From Salisapilia sapeloensis (Eukaryota; Oomycota; Peronosporomycetes; Peronosporales; Salisapiliaceae), in NCBI GenBank assembly GCA_023334545.1, contig JAADVB010000143.1, forward strand, positions 1 through 48,268: 48,268 bases of DNA, given 5' to 3'. The position numbers and the translations under genes are program-made. The notes beneath the pieces were generated by a model, which had not been told where the DNA came from, ran no database searches, and was given only the letters and a program-made list of their open reading frames with translations. Of the stretch, positions 399 through 9,732 are shown piece by piece; position 1 is the first letter of the stretch; every line of letters begins with the position of its first letter.

Positions 399-2174
399 AT
401 GGAGTCTCGCATCAGGCGATCAGCGCCTACATCGCTGCCGACCAACTATCCTGTGTCGATCATGTCCCCAAGTTCTTCTCCTCTATCCAGCTCCCCTCGT
501 TCAAAGTCGCTTAGTAAGCCGACGAGATCACGAGCTATCGTTCGCTTCTTGCAAGCGATCATGGCCTTCTCCGTTATCGTCGCCTTGTGGCAATGGTATC
601 GCCTAGAACCGATACAAAAGTCGACTCTCATGGACAAAGTCCACCTACCTCGTTTCCGAGGTCAAACTACTCCTCATCCTGTCCAAGAACAGCACTTCGA
701 AGGTGCCCATGACGGTGCTGTCCAAGAGGACATAGTTGATCAAGCACCGGAAGCTACTGCAATGGTTAATAACAAGGAGCGTTTTGATTCTGCAAAGCAT
801 AGCCCTGATCAACAGAAAGTAGTAGACATGATACGCTGGGCGTGGGATGCATATGAAAAGTATGCATACGGTCATGACTCATTAAACGTCCGTAGCTACG
901 AAGGCATGCGTGCTGAGAACGCTGATACGGCTCGTACTTTGATAGATTCGTTAGATGTTTTGTACTTGACAGGCATGTTTGACGAATTCGACCGAGCGAG
1001 TGACTGGGTTGCTGCGAATGTCGATGCTAAATTTAATCAAGTTGGCTTTGTCAACGTCTTTGAGACAACGATCAGAGCCATTGGTGGTCTATTAACGTCG
1101 TACCATCTTTCTGGAGACAAGCGAATGCTTGAGAAAGCAGATATGATCGGTGAAAAGCTATCATATGTCTTTACAGAGTACCCTGCGGGACTTCCTGCTC
1201 GAGAGTTTGACTTTTACAAGCGCAAGTCACGAGATAATCCGAATCTAGCGGAAGTAGGATCTTTGCAGCTCGAGTACAAGTACTTGGCTCGACTTACAGG
1301 GAAAAAGGAGTATTGGGACTACGTAGAACACATATCAGATCTTTTGATCGATGAAGTCAACAGCAAGTATACAAATGGATTGCTACCGAGTGCTGTGAAT
1401 ATCTATGCCGGTCGTCTCTCGAATGATAAAGTGACGATGGGTGCGCGTGGAGATAGTTACTTTGAATACCTTTTAAAACAATGGCTCTTGACGTCCAAGA
1501 CACAGAACAAGTATAAGGAACAGTATGAAATCGCTGTGCAAGGTATCTCGGACAAGATGATTGGGGAGACAGAACCGAACAAGTACAAGTTTGTGGGAGA
1601 ACTGGTGAACGGAAAGCTTGATCCGAAGATGGACCATCTTGTGTGCTTCTTCCCTGGACTCTTAGCTCTTGGCTATCATCATGGCATGCCGGAATGGCAC
1701 TTGGACTTGGCCAAAGAGCTGATGGAGACGTGCTATCAAATGTATGCGCACATGGCGACTGGGCTTGCACCGGAGATTGTCTACTTGAACACAGACGAAG
1801 GATCGGATCGGAGGGATTTGTACGTGAAGAGGAATGATGACTTTAATATTCTTCGACCAGAGACAGTAGAAAGCTTGATGGTCTTGTATCGCGTGACGAA
1901 GGACGAAAAATATCGAGAGTACGGACGAAATATCCGAAATGCGTTTGAAGATAACTGTAGATTGGACAAAGGTGGATATAGCAGTGTGCATTTCGTGAGC
2001 GAGGGGCCGGCGCAGCAGTTCTTCCGGAAAGACATGGAAAGTTTCTTCATTGCAGAGACACTCAAGTACCTGTTCCTGCTCTTTGATGACAACGACATAA
2101 TGTCTTTGGATGAATACGTTTTCAACACCGAGGCACATCCGTTTCCCATGTCTCCCTACACGTTTAACCCGTAG
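399..2174 (+). CDS. GH47 class I alpha-1,2-mannosidase, type II membrane protein
   Basis: Single-exon gene of 591 aa. Class I alpha-mannosidases (glycoside hydrolase family 47) trim alpha-1,2-linked mannose from N-glycans in the ER or Golgi, a calcium-dependent inverting reaction. A Ser/Arg-rich cytosolic tail (about 1-46) is followed by one hydrophobic signal anchor (about 47-66), a stem, and a luminal catalytic domain from about residue 140. Family signatures visible are the V-F-E-T-T-I-R-A-I-G-G-L block near 206-218, the D-H-L-V-C-F-F-P-G block, the F-N-I-L-R-P-E-T-V-E-S block, and the closing E-S-F-F-I-A-E-T-L-K-Y-L segment. The last sits before T-E-A-H-P, where the family's calcium-binding Thr lies. 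Length is normal for the family. The start is the first ATG; a downstream Met (base 462) would still leave the anchor intact. ER versus Golgi placement cannot be told from sequence. Confidence 0.93.
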   Translation: MESRIRRSAPTSLPTNYPVSIMSPSSSPLSSSPRSKSLSKPTRSRAIVRFLQAIMAFSVIVALWQWYRLEPIQKSTLMDKVHLPRFRGQTTPHPVQEQHFEGAHDGAVQEDIVDQAPEATAMVNNKERFDSAKHSPDQQKVVDMIRWAWDAYEKYAYGHDSLNVRSYEGMRAENADTARTLIDSLDVLYLTGMFDEFDRASDWVAANVDAKFNQVGFVNVFETTIRAIGGLLTSYHLSGDKRMLEKADMIGEKLSYVFTEYPAGLPAREFDFYKRKSRDNPNLAEVGSLQLEYKYLARLTGKKEYWDYVEHISDLLIDEVNSKYTNGLLPSAVNIYAGRLSNDKVTMGARGDSYFEYLLKQWLLTSKTQNKYKEQYEIAVQGISDKMIGETEPNKYKFVGELVNGKLDPKMDHLVCFFPGLLALGYHHGMPEWHLDLAKELMETCYQMYAHMATGLAPEIVYLNTDEGSDRRDLYVKRNDDFNILRPETVESLMVLYRVTKDEKYREYGRNIRNAFEDNCRLDKGGYSSVHFVSEGPAQQFFRKDMESFFIAETLKYLFLLFDDNDIMSLDEYVFNTEAHPFPMSPYTFNP

Positions 2175-3310: not shown

Positions 3311-5306
3311 ATGAGTGGACCAACTGTCCTCCTTATAATATTCATCAGCACACACTTCCTTCAAATAGTGCAGAGTGATGTTTGTACTGAGAAAGAGGAG
3401 ATAGAATCGATCGAAATGCAAGCTGAAGTAAACATATTCAAATATGACTTTAAGTGCGTGACCATGGAAACTTTGGCCTACGACTGCGCGACTGCATGCA
3501 CCCGAGCTTACCAGGAATTATATGAAAGCCTTTCTGATTGCGCTGTACCTTCCGAACCATTCGGGTACTTGAATCTAAAGGAACTTTACCATGCCTTCGA
3601 GCACTTGTGCATAGAAGACATTGGCAGTGGAAATGCTTCAAATTTTGAAGAGCTGGAAGGTAGCTATGCGTCTATATTCGTTTTGGGCTCGAACGATATA
3701 ACTGATCCGTTTATATGTATAGACGACTGGCAAGAACTAATATTCCCAACCTACGGATCCGTGCCGATCAATTTAAATGAGCATAGGCTACTCCAACTAG
3801 CTCAGGGTGCTGTATCTGCCCCTATTGACACATCGTCGGCTGTTTCCTCTTCAGGATCATCCATTTCTTCGGCTACAGCATCAACAGTTGTGTCCACTTC
3901 GGGATCGTTTTTCGGGACCGCTTTAGCATCGAATCTTCCTGTTCGTTTTCCACAAAGTGGCGTATCATCATCGATTTCTGACGTCATACAAACGTCAAGT
4001 TCTAGTACATTTGAGGATGATTCGTACTCCTTTCTACCTGGCCTTGACTATTCCTCATCGCTCTCTTCAGATGATTCTGATGGATCATCGCGACATAGCG
4101 ACAAATATCATTCGAAGAAAGACGATGGACCCGATATACTCATTATCATCATTCCAGTACTTCTCATTGGTCTCTTCCTAATTATTGGGGGCTTCTGGCT
4201 GTATGATCAGCACAAGCAAGATATGGCCAGAATATCCGCAGAGGAAGCGTACCAACGATATAATGTGAGTGAAAGGACGACAACAGCGACCGAGACAGTA
4301 TCCCCAGCTGTGCCTTCATCTCACGCTCAAAGTCCATCGAATGGTGCTAATGTCTATGATATCTGGAGCGACAGAGAGCTCGTGGAGAAAAAGCTAAACC
4401 ACGCAGAAATTCGAGACATAAAGGTTCTCGGCTCTGGTGCTTTCGGAGTCGTCTGGTTGGTTTCTTATTACGATAAACATTACGCATCAAAAAGACCAGC
4501 ACGCAACATCGTCGATCCGTCTGCTTTTGAAACCTTTGTCGATGAAGTGAAGCTGGTTGCAAGAATCGAGCATGCCAATATTATCGAATGCATTGGTGTC
4601 GCTTGGACAATGAGGTCGAACTTCCAAGCTCTCTTTACATATGCGTCGAACGGTGACTTGCGAGACTATCTACAGCGATCTACTACACCTCGTCACTGGA
4701 CCAAGGAAAAGCTTAGTATTGCTATTGATATTGCCGAAGCACTCGTGTATGTTCAGTCTTTCGAGCGTCCTATTGTCCACCGCGACCTCAAGTCCCGCAA
4801 TGTTCTATTATCAGAGGAGATGATCGCGAAAGTGAGTGATTTTGGCTCCGCTCGGCTCATGTCAGACAACAATACCATGACCACTCAAGCTGTTGGAACT
4901 GCTCGGGTACGTGTAGCAATCTTATACTTTTTCTTTATTTATATATTTACTAACGAATATTTTTTCTTTGATGTAGTGGCTTGCACCCGAAGTCGTAGCC
5001 GGGGAGTCTTATGACCATACTTGCGATTCGTACTCATTTGGAGCTATCTTGACCGAACTGGATACGAATGAGCTGCCTTTACATGATGTTACAGATCGAG
5101 AAGGCAAGATCCTTCCGGACTATGCACTCCTGCATCGTGTAGCCTGTCGCACGATCAAACCAAGGGTCTCTGAGAACTGTCCACAGGCGATGCGGGATCT
5201 TGTAGACCAGTGTTTGAATTTCGTACCGAGAGAGCGACCGACCGCAGTGCAAATCTCTTTCCAATTGCGTGAGATGATGAAAAATAGGAGTGTATTGAAT
5301 AACTAA
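3311..5306 (+). CDS. TKL receptor-like kinase with elicitin-like Cys array
   Basis: Two exons, 3311-4906 and 4977-5306. The 70-bp intron has a TACTAAC branch site and joins G-T-A-R to W-L-A-P-E in phase 0, giving 641 aa. A signal peptide (about 1-22) leads an ectodomain whose first six cysteines are C25, C49, C59, C63, C77 and C100. A Ser/Asp-rich stalk follows (about 185-270), then one transmembrane helix (about 275-298) and a TKL kinase domain (about 370-640). Kinase motifs present are the G-S-G-A-F-G-V-V loop, a lysine in Y-A-S-K-R, the H-R-D-L-K-S-R-N catalytic loop and D-F-G. All expected catalytic residues are present, so it is probably active. Transmembrane TKL kinases are common in oomycetes. 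The cysteine gaps (23, 9, 3, 13, 22) resemble the elicitin pattern (23, 23, 4, 14, 23) with a shortened second gap; calling it elicitin-like is my inference. Ligand unknown. Confidence 0.88.
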
Positions 5307-5964: not shown

Positions 5965-7313
5965 CTACTGCATTCGCTTCTTTCGTCGACACCAGCAGAA
6001 GATGAAAATAGCAGCTGCGACGATTGCAAGAAAAATCGGAAGCACAATTGCGACGACGGTATTGCCTGAAACTCCTTCACCTGAAACGCATACATGGTAT
6101 GAGGTGCCCTCAATAGTTTTGGTGCCGCCGGTATGGCAATCAAAATCATTGCTTTTCCAGTCTCCACCCAATGTCACATTTGCCTTGTTCAATATTGCCA
6201 ATAGTTCAGGCGTTACGCTTCGATCAGAAGCAGAACTATCTGTAATAACTCTAACATGAGCATCGTGAAAGCGCGTTAGTGTCATTTTAAAAGGAGAGTA
6301 TTCGCTACTCGTACAATGTTTCAAGCTTTTTCGCTGAAGCCAGAGCTTGCGGGATTCGACGGACCGATTTTCGTAGTACTCTGTGATATTAGAGTAACAT
6401 TAGTCGACTTTGTCAATAGTGGAGACAATCTTGCCTACACGATGCGAGCATTTTCCAAACTCAGGTTCCGAGGGATATCAAGGAGCGGATTGTAACTCAG
6501 ATCTCTGTTGTGCATAAAGGCATTTAGTTTCGTAAAAGCTTTACAGTCATTTACTTTGAAGCAGTCTTACATGCTATGAGCAGTCCTCAAGTAGTCTCCT
6601 TCTGGTAACTTTGTGGAGCCGCTATTCGCCATGACAAAAGTTTGGATGTCCTTATCAGCCAAAACTTTGTTCCAATCAGGCATGTTTTTTCGATAGTAAG
6701 GATCCTCGTGGATAAATCGAATGCCATCAAAATAGATGGTCTTCAGGTTTTTTCCGGATGCAATAGTCTCACTCGAGACATCTACTTTAATGCCTCGAGA
6801 ATAATGCTGCTTGGTACGACTAGCTATCATGCTGTAGAACACGGCATTAGTATTTTGACAGTCAAAAGATATAAATACAAAATGGAAAAGAATTTACAGC
6901 ATATCGATGTGATCAGGAATCCGAACATCTACATCCTTGATGCACTCTTCAGCGATCCATGGTGTAGATGGTGCCGTCGAATCGGTGTAGCCGTTTATAT
7001 TTACAGTCAAGTTGAATACGGCGCTGTTGTTGTCGAAGAGATGGAAGCACTGATATGCACAACCATCGTCGTCCGGGGATTCGCACTCTCCTGAACCGTA
7101 GGATATATTTCGCGATCGATCCTTTGCAGTGGGTTTTTCGCATCCGTTCTTTAGGAAGCTACTCTCTCCATCGTAAGCAACGCATGCATCGTAGCCCTCG
7201 CAGTGGCCATCGCAGTTAGACGAAAGCGTGTTTGTTTTAATGCTACAGTAGCAGGCTGCGACAGAGAGTAGGCAAATAAAACTCAAAGCAGTTAATCGTC
7301 TCTTCACGTACAT
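5965..7313 (-). CDS. LRR receptor-like membrane protein without kinase domain
   Basis: Four exons in transcription order: 7313-6898, 6831-6571, 6504-6441 and 6378-5965. Introns are 66, 66 and 62 bp and all phases fit, giving 384 aa. A signal peptide (about 1-23) precedes a Cys-rich head (N-C-D-G-H-C-E-G-Y-D-A-C). Next come degenerate leucine-rich repeats, including N-L-K-T-I-Y-F-D-G-I and I-D-L-S-Y-N-P-L-L-D-I-P across the exon 2/3 junction, then a transmembrane helix and a basic R-R-K-K-R-M-Q end. The layout is that of oomycete LRR receptor-like kinases, but the protein stops just after the membrane. It is the intact sister of the pseudogene at 8619-9732, whose reading frame continues past the equivalent point. 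A role as a decoy or co-receptor is possible but unproven. The third intron's ends (GTGTAG..AGAG) were chosen for phase. Confidence 0.75.
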
Positions 7314-8618: not shown

Positions 8619-9732
8619 TCACTTCTTTTGTCGGCGTCTATAAAAGATGAATCCAGCAATTGCAATAACGACAACACAGATCGGCACGACAATCGCTGCG
8701 ATAGTTCCGCCTGGCATGCCTTCATCTAAAACGCATACCTTGCATGACGTACCCTCAATAGTGTCGACATGACCACCATCGCAGTCAAAATCATTGGTTT
8801 CCACTCTACACCTAACGTTACATCCGCCTTGTTCAAAACATCAAGCAGGTCCGATGTCACGCTTTGGTCGTGAATTCCCTTAGGCAGCAGAATTTTATAA
8901 AGTACATTCAGATTTTGTGTTAATTCTTCCTTTGCAACGAATTTATTGAAGATACAATGTTTCAAGATGCTTTGCTGTGGCGAGAGCTTCCGGAACTTAT
9001 TGTCGGATGTTTCACTTAGTATCCTGTGGAAACATAGTCACATTACGACACACCATAACGAAAGTTTGAATATCCTTGCCGGCTAAAGCTTCATTTCAAT
9101 CCGGCATATTGCTTTGCTCATCAAAAAACACTGTATGAAGTATCACATTGTCAAAGTAAATGTTCTTGAGATTCTTTCTGGATGTGAACGTTTCGTCCGT
9201 GATGTTGAAATGAACGCCTCCTTTTCCCTGCTCAACACCAACAAATTTACTTCACAGCACAACATTAGCACAGCTTAGATATAATAGAATTGAAGTACAG
9301 AAGATGATGTACGCACAGTGTGTCAATGTGATCAGGGATTTGAATATCGACGTTGTCAATGTACCCGTTAAGCGTCCATGGTGTGTCTGGTTCCATCGAG
9401 TCGTTGTATCCTCTATTGGGGACAGTCAATTCGAAGGTTGAGTTGTTGGAATCGAAGAGATGGAAACACTGGTATACACATCCAGAATTATCCGGGAACT
9501 GACACACTCCTGAGCTTTTGGATTTATTTTGATGTTTGGAAGAGGAGTCACCAGATCCGCATGCATTGTAGTAATAGTGTCTAGTTGCATCATAAACGGT
9601 GCAGGCGTCGTAGCCATCACATTGGCCCTCGCAGTTGGATGTGAGCGTGTTGGTTTCAATATTGCACTCACAGGTTGCGACAACGACTAGACAAATGCTA
9701 ATTAAAGCAGTTAATGTTCCTTTGAACGGCAT
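8619..9732 (-). pseudogene. decayed tandem copy of the LRR receptor-like gene
   Basis: Clear paralogue of the gene at 5965-7313. The signal peptide and Cys-rich exon (start ATG at 9732) are intact and keep the N-C-E-G-Q-C-D-G-Y-D-A-C head. Downstream there are three lesions relative to the sister gene. First, an in-frame TGA at 9098-9096 replaces the Trp codon of the P-D-W motif. Second, the whole LRR exon and its flanking introns are missing: sequence runs from V-M-V straight to a remnant of the third intron near 9010-9045. Third, one base is lost at about 8796-8803 (AAA-AGC-AAT in the sister, AAA-CC-AAT here), shifting frame before the transmembrane helix. The helix and R-R-R-Q-K-K tail remain readable. 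A sequencing error could explain one lesion, not all three. Confidence 0.85.

What the first reader, a model, noticed from the sequence alone, without database searches (positions are those of the whole stretch)
3311..5306. Receptor-like TKL kinase whose ectodomain has an elicitin-like cysteine array
The first six cysteines fall at 25, 49, 59, 63, 77 and 100. Elicitins, which bind sterols, have six at gaps 23-23-4-14-23. Here the gaps are 23-9-3-13-22, so four of five match within one residue and only the second is short. A membrane kinase with such a head would be a candidate sterol or lipid sensor in an organism group where elicitins are prominent.
Basis: partly seen in the sequence, partly recalled or inferred. 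Interest (0 to 1): 0.75.

Follow-up and report, generated by a model that had tools for sequence, protein, structure and literature searches.

The report
Receptor kinase with elicitin-like head
This gene encodes a cell-surface kinase receptor of an oomycete-type organism whose outer head looks like a shortened relative of the sterol-carrying elicitin proteins, hinting that a lipid or sterol sensor may be built directly into a signalling receptor.

Summary
The cysteine array is real; the gene model gains one intron. Exons 3311-3659, 3723-4906 and 4977-5306 give 620 aa. Layout: signal peptide, six-Cys head, Ser-rich stalk, one transmembrane helix, TKL kinase with intact catalytic motifs.

The head belongs to a family of 15 loci in this genome: 7 lie just upstream of a kinase, 1 is cut by a contig end, 7 have no such kinase. 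All keep six cysteines. The family profile aligns C1-C6 in register with this genome's own elicitins (E about 1e-4); 0 of 200 cysteine-preserving shuffles scored as high. But Pfam Elicitin does not match, the C2-C3 gap is 9 rather than 22-25, and the fold test is inconclusive. So: elicitin-like, probably a remote relative, not a member by definition.

Genuine elicitin-kinase proteins exist: two Pythium insidiosum proteins pass Pfam Elicitin and carry a related kinase. The window's sister kinases have LRR-type heads where examined, suggesting a head swap. In P. sojae, sterol sensing pairs a receptor kinase (SSRK1) with separate elicitins; here such a head and kinase are one protein. Sterol binding is untested.

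The parts
3311..3659 (+). Exon 1: signal peptide, six-cysteine head and its tail
   Evidence: splice donor shared with four paralogues
3311..3376 (+). Likely signal peptide (residues 1-22)
   Evidence: Hydrophobic stretch; cleavage site judged by eye, no predictor run
3377..3610 (+). Six-cysteine elicitin-like head (residues 23-100; Cys 25, 49, 59, 63, 77, 100)
3660..3722 (+).
   Evidence: paralogues C338, C23, C427, C57 need an intron here
3723..4906 (+). Exon 2: IFPTY segment, Ser-rich stalk, transmembrane helix, juxtamembrane, kinase N-lobe and part of C-lobe
4136..4201 (+). Transmembrane helix (residues 255-276 of the 620-aa protein)
   Evidence: Hydropathy maximum 3.12, position
4415..4906 (+). 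Kinase domain, first part (Gly loop GSGAFGVV, ASK lysine, HRDLK, DFG)
   Evidence: PF07714 E 8.8e-27; motifs
4907..4976 (+).
   Evidence: same break in paralogues
4977..5306 (+). Exon 3: kinase domain, second part (WLAPE to stop)
   Evidence: PF00069 E 4.5e-13

Best explanation
A single-pass receptor kinase of an oomycete-specific TKL lineage. SHOWN by sequence: hydrophobic leader, six-cysteine head conserved in 15 loci of this genome, Ser-rich stalk, one transmembrane helix, kinase with all catalytic motifs, kinase clade sister to kinases of the same genome with LRR-type heads. INFERRED: the head is a remote, shortened relative of the elicitin domain (three disulfides C1-C5, C2-C4, C3-C6, without most of the stretch between C2 and C3 that holds the omega loop in elicitins) which replaced the LRR head of an oomycete LRR receptor kinase. 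INFERRED further: the head binds an extracellular ligand - a sterol, another lipid, or a loaded elicitin/GPI-type member of the same head family - and ligand-driven clustering lets the kinase domains phosphorylate each other and downstream targets, as the P. sojae pair SSRK1 plus elicitin does with two separate proteins. The heads differ far more between paralogues (22-64% identity to the window head) than their kinases do (71-90%), as expected of receptors that share one output but sense different things.
For: Gene and domains. Family with invariant six Cys. Seven of 15 heads lie 489-750 bp upstream of a same-strand kinase hit; none of the 18 own elicitins has one closer than 6.7 kb. Profile match to own elicitins: prob 46-55, E 1e-4 to 2e-4, score 26.2 against 9.7+-1.6, maximum 18.1 in 200 Cys-kept shuffles; reciprocal shuffles 0 of 100; all six Cys pair off in order. 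Shared residues beyond Cys: the site 11 before C6, where elicitins have pocket residue V84 (PMC12662980 passages; site numbering recalled), is hydrophobic in 14 of 14, preceded by N in 11 of 14; sylvaticin of the PDB has LNVKKL there, the window YLNLKEL. Precedent: P0052 and P0059 of Pythium insidiosum have Pfam Elicitin (31.2 and 31.9 bits, cut-off 25) plus kinase in one protein. Kinase tree. Head identity; kinase identity.
Against: Pfam Elicitin fails for the whole family. Singly, only 3 of 15 members beat all 300 Cys-kept shuffles against the elicitin model; the window head was reached by 6 of 300, and C23 and C114 show no signal. With Cys masked on both sides the profile score falls to 16.0. 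Profile match to the two P. insidiosum heads alone is nil (score 11.8) and to Saprolegniales heads nil (11.0, 13 of 100 shuffles as high). PDB sequence searches with the family and with two members found nothing. Fold evidence weak and from one of two low-confidence models. No orthologue of this head outside the genome. Pocket residues in the missing C2-C3 stretch would be lost (recalled map), so sterol binding may not survive.
Confidence: 0.6

Rival explanations
1. The head is a six-cysteine helical mini-domain of its own, not related to elicitins; similar spacing of C3-C6 is convergence, and the ligand is unknown, perhaps a peptide or wall sugar.
Against: Score 26.2 with all six Cys in register, 0 of 200 and 0 of 100 shuffles in both directions; masking Cys on both sides still leaves E 0.014; five elicitin entries among 33 rows in the second-look list for one model; kinases with true elicitin heads exist in the same kinase group.
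Confidence: 0.28
2. Elicitin-related head that has lost lipid binding and serves as a protein docking or dimerisation module, for instance pairing with GPI-type or secreted members of the same head family or with true elicitins that deliver the sterol.
For: The C2-C3 stretch, which in elicitins holds the omega loop and part of the pocket (recalled), is about 14 residues shorter; elicitin-like proteins of other oomycetes are thought not to bind sterols (PMC3090399 passages); SSRK1 works by docking loaded elicitins (PMC12662980 passages); the genome has both kinase-free heads and 18 elicitin hits.
Against: The V84-like site stays hydrophobic in 14 of 14, as a pocket would need; no interaction data.
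Confidence: 0.4
3. Ordinary lineage-specific receptor expansion without a lipid role: fast-changing heads on a stock kinase, some decaying.
For: Heads 22-64% identical while kinases are 71-90%; large TKL receptor expansions are usual in oomycetes (PMC3019232 and PMC3681718 passages).
Against: Six Cys invariant in 14 of 14 aligned members; open kinase with all motifs; says nothing on why the head is elicitin-like.
Confidence: 0.2

Closest known systems
Pythium insidiosum proteins P0052 (PINS_up023530) and P0059 (P43SY_004336): Pfam Elicitin + transmembrane + TKL kinase
   Same: One polypeptide with six-Cys head, transmembrane helix and a kinase of the same oomycete LRR-RK group (48% and 40% identity in the best local alignment to the window)
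   Different: Their head passes Pfam Elicitin and has the long C2-C3 stretch (22 residues); separate kinase clade, though one common clade is not rejected (p-AU 0.10)
SSRK1-elicitin sterol-sensing complex of Phytophthora sojae (Pei et al. 2024, not held; seen through passages of PMC12662980 and PMC12223298)
   Same: An oomycete receptor-like kinase whose input involves an elicitin domain
   Different: There kinase and elicitins are separate proteins, and a P. parasitica SSRK1 homologue is listed with LRR ectodomain; the window protein carries its own head and no LRR
Oomycete transmembrane TKL kinases, including LRR-RKs (PMC3019232, PMC3268121 passages)
   Same: Signal peptide, transmembrane helix, cytoplasmic TKL kinase; sister kinases in this genome are of LRR type where examined
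   Different: Head is a six-Cys mini-domain; the word elicitin does not occur in the main text of the P. infestans kinome paper
Elicitins and elicitin-like proteins (PF00964)
   Same: Six Cys in the same order with near-equal C3-C6 spacing, profile similarity, GPI-type or secreted relatives of the head
   Different: C2-C3 gap 9 instead of 22-25; no Pfam match; attached to a kinase
Saprolegniales receptor kinases with six-Cys heads (P0094, P0103, P0096, P0114, P0115)
   Same: Six-Cys head + transmembrane + TKL kinase; head profile resembles own elicitins (score 21.9, 0 of 100 shuffles)
   Different: Distant kinase clade, long C2-C3 (19-21), no detectable similarity to the window head; Pfam Elicitin only faint in P0115 (11.0 bits, cut-off 25)

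Membership tests
Elicitin (PF00964) | Pfam gathering score (25 bits) | tested here: not met
   No Elicitin match for the window protein or 14 family members at E up to 10
Elicitin (PF00964) | Six cysteines in the elicitin order | tested here: met
   All six pair off in order in the profile alignment; invariant in 14 of 14
Elicitin (PF00964) | Elicitin spacing, above all C2-C3 of about 22-25 residues | tested here: not met
   C2-C3 is 8-9 in 14 members and 11 in C15; C3-C4, C4-C5, C5-C6 within one or two residues of own elicitins
Elicitin (PF00964) | Sequence relation beyond the cysteines | tested here: met
   Family level: 26.2 against at most 18.1 in 200 Cys-kept shuffles, 0 of 100 reciprocal. 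Single-sequence level weak: window 6 of 300 shuffles as high
Elicitin (PF00964) | Elicitin fold | tested here: inconclusive
Elicitin (PF00964) | Disulfides C1-C5, C2-C4, C3-C6 | not testable with these tools
   Pattern as given for ELI025 in PMC4368664 passages
Elicitin (PF00964) | Sterol binding | not testable with these tools
   V84-like site hydrophobic in 14 of 14 is compatible, no more
Oomycete transmembrane TKL receptor-like kinase | Leader, single transmembrane helix, TKL-type kinase placed among oomycete TKLs | tested here: met
   98/88-supported clade with four own kinases inside a larger clade that holds oomycete LRR-RKs such as P0041 of P. sojae
Oomycete LRR receptor kinase (SSRK1/PsRLK type) | LRR ectodomain | tested here: not met
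   No LRR match in the window protein at E up to 10; 15 LRR-type heads gave one 34-aa match at E 0.005 to the window ectodomain region

The most novel reading that the evidence does not exclude
A built-in version of the two-protein SSRK1-elicitin sterol sensor: oomycete LRR receptor kinases have had their LRR head replaced by an elicitin-type lipid-binding module, in at least three lineages (this genome's short-head family, Pythium insidiosum, Saprolegniales), each then free to diversify its head while keeping the kinase; in the window's family the module works without the omega loop.
Probability: 0.3. Interest if true: 0.85.

Novelty: new variant of a known kind. Interest (0 to 1): 0.6.

Why it matters
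How sterol-dependent oomycetes sense sterols is an open question that has only lately been given a receptor (SSRK1) and its soluble partners (elicitins). Proteins that carry an elicitin or elicitin-like head and the kinase on one chain would be natural fusions of that pair: they would support the pathway independently, allow ligand tests on a single protein, and show that an elicitin head alone can drive a receptor. They would also show that elicitins, known mainly as plant-defence elicitors, gave rise to signalling modules of the organism itself. In my ten searches of openly licensed papers no listed title, abstract or passage that I saw describes an elicitin head on a kinase; subscription papers were not covered.

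Tried and rejected
Direct Pfam recognition of the head: none. PDB sequence searches with the family profile, member C188 and the window head: none at E 10. Search of the head among 5.8 billion proteins: window residues 1-260, 3075 candidates, none at E 1; family alignment, 144 candidates, none. The family model against the 120 listed kinase homologues (of 170 found): best 3.8 bits.

Considered and set aside: that the seventh cysteine belongs to the head (intron-encoded); that the array is chance (conservation); that the three lineages of elicitin-type heads on kinases share one origin: holding the window family and the P. insidiosum/P. oligandrum clade together is not rejected (p-AU 0.102), so separate origins are not shown.

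Rows dropped: 4 of 18 own elicitin hits (L022, L024, L025, L026, partial or lacking a Cys in the matched stretch) were left out of the elicitin profile; locus C15 was found later and is not in the 14-row family profile; 65 of 127 kinase domains entered the tree, near-duplicates above 72% identity being left out except named ones. Saprolegniales heads were picked by eye after weak model scores, so they are not an unbiased sample; for P0096 only the best 25 of 52 Pfam rows were shown.

Full report
WHAT IS THERE. Comparison with paralogues changes the gene model. In C338, C23, C427 and C57 the head exon ends at an AG|GT donor at the same codon, and the next coding block begins after an AG about 60-70 nt on, in another frame or after stops. 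The window has the same donor and acceptor, 63 nt apart, so that reading through happens to stay in frame. Aligned with C338 and C23 that stretch has length differences of one and two bases. The likely protein is 620 aa: leader, six-Cys head (25, 49, 59, 63, 77, 100), Ser-rich stalk, transmembrane helix 255-276, kinase with GSGAFGVV, ASK, HRDLK, DFG and APE.

THE HEAD IS A FAMILY. Searching the own genome with the window head and three divergent members gives 15 loci; the weakest from the window alone (E 0.001-0.08) are joined by the reciprocal searches and by the cysteines. Gaps are 23-26, 8-9, 3, 13, 21-22 in 14, 26-11-3-13-22 in C15. Seven sit 489-750 bp upstream of a kinase hit (C50, C338, C23, C427, C57, C423, C114), one (C202) meets the contig end, seven have no such kinase (the kinase list is a lower bound). 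C174 and C334 end in a Ser-rich stalk and a hydrophobic tail that looks like a GPI signal (read by eye).

IS IT ELICITIN? The genome has 18 elicitin hits over Pfam's cut-off, none of them this gene, and none with a same-strand kinase closer than 6.7 kb downstream. Pfam does not see the head as elicitin. Profile against profile, the family (14 rows) aligns with 14 own elicitins over the whole head, all six Cys in register, prob 46-55, E 1e-4 to 2e-4. Controls: non-Cys columns of the family shuffled with Cys kept, 0 of 200 reach 26.2 (mean 9.7, maximum 18.1); elicitin columns shuffled likewise, 0 of 100 (maximum 18.2); all columns shuffled, maximum 18.7 of 100; reversed elicitins 9.8; Cys replaced by X on both sides 16.0, E 0.014; Cys to Ser in the family alone 8.7. 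A real Cys-rich oomycete domain, the LRR-RK cap, gave 17.2 over 15 columns. One by one, C188, C35 and C423 beat all 300 Cys-kept shuffles under the elicitin model, the window head was reached by 6 of 300, and C23 (150) and C114 (260) show nothing. The family thus carries a real but weak elicitin signal beyond its cysteines. The C5-C6 segment is most alike: YLNLKELYHAFEHLC in the window, RLNVKKLVTEFEPSC in the solved elicitin sylvaticin. The second residue after that N-containing pair's first position, 11 before C6, corresponds to V84, the core of the elicitin pocket (PMC12662980 passages; numbering recalled), and is L, I, V, M or A in 14 of 14, with N just before it in 11 of 14. What is missing is most of the C2-C3 stretch, which in elicitins holds the omega loop and pocket residues (recalled).

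KINASES WITH ELICITIN HEADS ELSEWHERE. A search with the 532-aa first part of the protein found 170 kinases, 120 listed; named sources are oomycetes. Two of the 120, both Pythium insidiosum, bear Pfam Elicitin, confirmed at 31.2 and 31.9 bits (cut-off 25). Five Saprolegniales proteins have six-Cys heads with long C2-C3; as a set they resemble own elicitins (21.9, 0 of 100 shuffles) but not the window family (11.0, 13 of 100), and the window family does not match the two P. insidiosum heads alone (11.8). In a tree of 65 kinase domains the six window-type kinases form one clade (100/100) sister to own kinases C260, C42, C290, C429 (98/88); the P. insidiosum pair with two P. oligandrum proteins is another clade (100/97) and the Saprolegniales group lies far off. 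One clade for the window family plus the Pythium group is not rejected (p-AU 0.102). The sister kinases have LRR-type heads as far as examined: C42 and C260 match LRR-RK ectodomains (E 4e-4 to 3e-7 in a small database), with sub-threshold LRR_4 for C42 and C290; C290 also shares its membrane-proximal end with the window's LRR-type neighbour; C429 was not examined. The simplest story is a head swap on an LRR receptor kinase.

HOW IT MAY WORK. In P. sojae the receptor kinase SSRK1 senses sterol together with elicitins: sterol-loaded elicitins promote higher-order SSRK1-elicitin complexes, calcium influx and MAPK activation (PMC12662980 and PMC12223298, passages only; the original paper is not held). 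The window protein has an elicitin-like head on the receptor itself. I infer that the head binds a lipid or a loaded partner and clusters the kinases. Heads differ much more than kinases between paralogues: C114 has 83% kinase and 22% head identity to the window, C338 90% and 64%. Whether the ligand is a sterol is open; elicitin-like proteins of other oomycetes are thought not to bind sterols (PMC3090399 passages).

NOVELTY. The P. infestans kinome paper describes 99 kinases with transmembrane domains, all TKL, and its main text does not use the word elicitin (PMC3019232 passages); the S. parasitica genome paper counts 131 transmembrane kinases and 29 elicitin-like proteins, and the passages I saw do not connect them (PMC3681718). 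Ten searches of openly licensed papers showed me no description of an elicitin head on a kinase. I file it as a new variant of a known kind: an oomycete TKL receptor kinase with an elicitin-like head, not a Pfam elicitin.

Noticed in passing
window 5966-7313 (-) and about 8619-9732 (-): Two tandem neighbours (52% identical over the first 139 aa) look like LRR receptor ectodomains with a transmembrane end and a very short tail, but no kinase follows; N-terminal caps match oomycete LRR-RKs and C-terminal parts match own LRR-type kinases. They would be receptor-like proteins beside a receptor kinase.
   Followed up: partly
window 399-2174 (+): Glycosyl hydrolase family 47 gene (Pfam E 2.8e-139), in one uninterrupted frame.
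   Followed up: yes
L039, L040, L042, L034 (C174, C334, C413, C452) and L017, L018, L019: Kinase-free members of the head family and some own elicitins share Ser-rich stalks and similar hydrophobic tails (SDGAA-I type in C334 and in elicitins C52, C35), as if both were GPI-anchored by like signals; read by eye.
   Followed up: no
P0036, P0055 (Pythium oligandrum): Kinases that group with the P. insidiosum elicitin-kinases (100/97) but whose models start just before the transmembrane helix; an elicitin exon may have been missed in annotation.
   Followed up: no
P0094, P0103, P0096, P0114, P0115 (Saprolegniales): Receptor kinases with six-Cys heads faintly like elicitins, a distant kinase clade.
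   Followed up: partly
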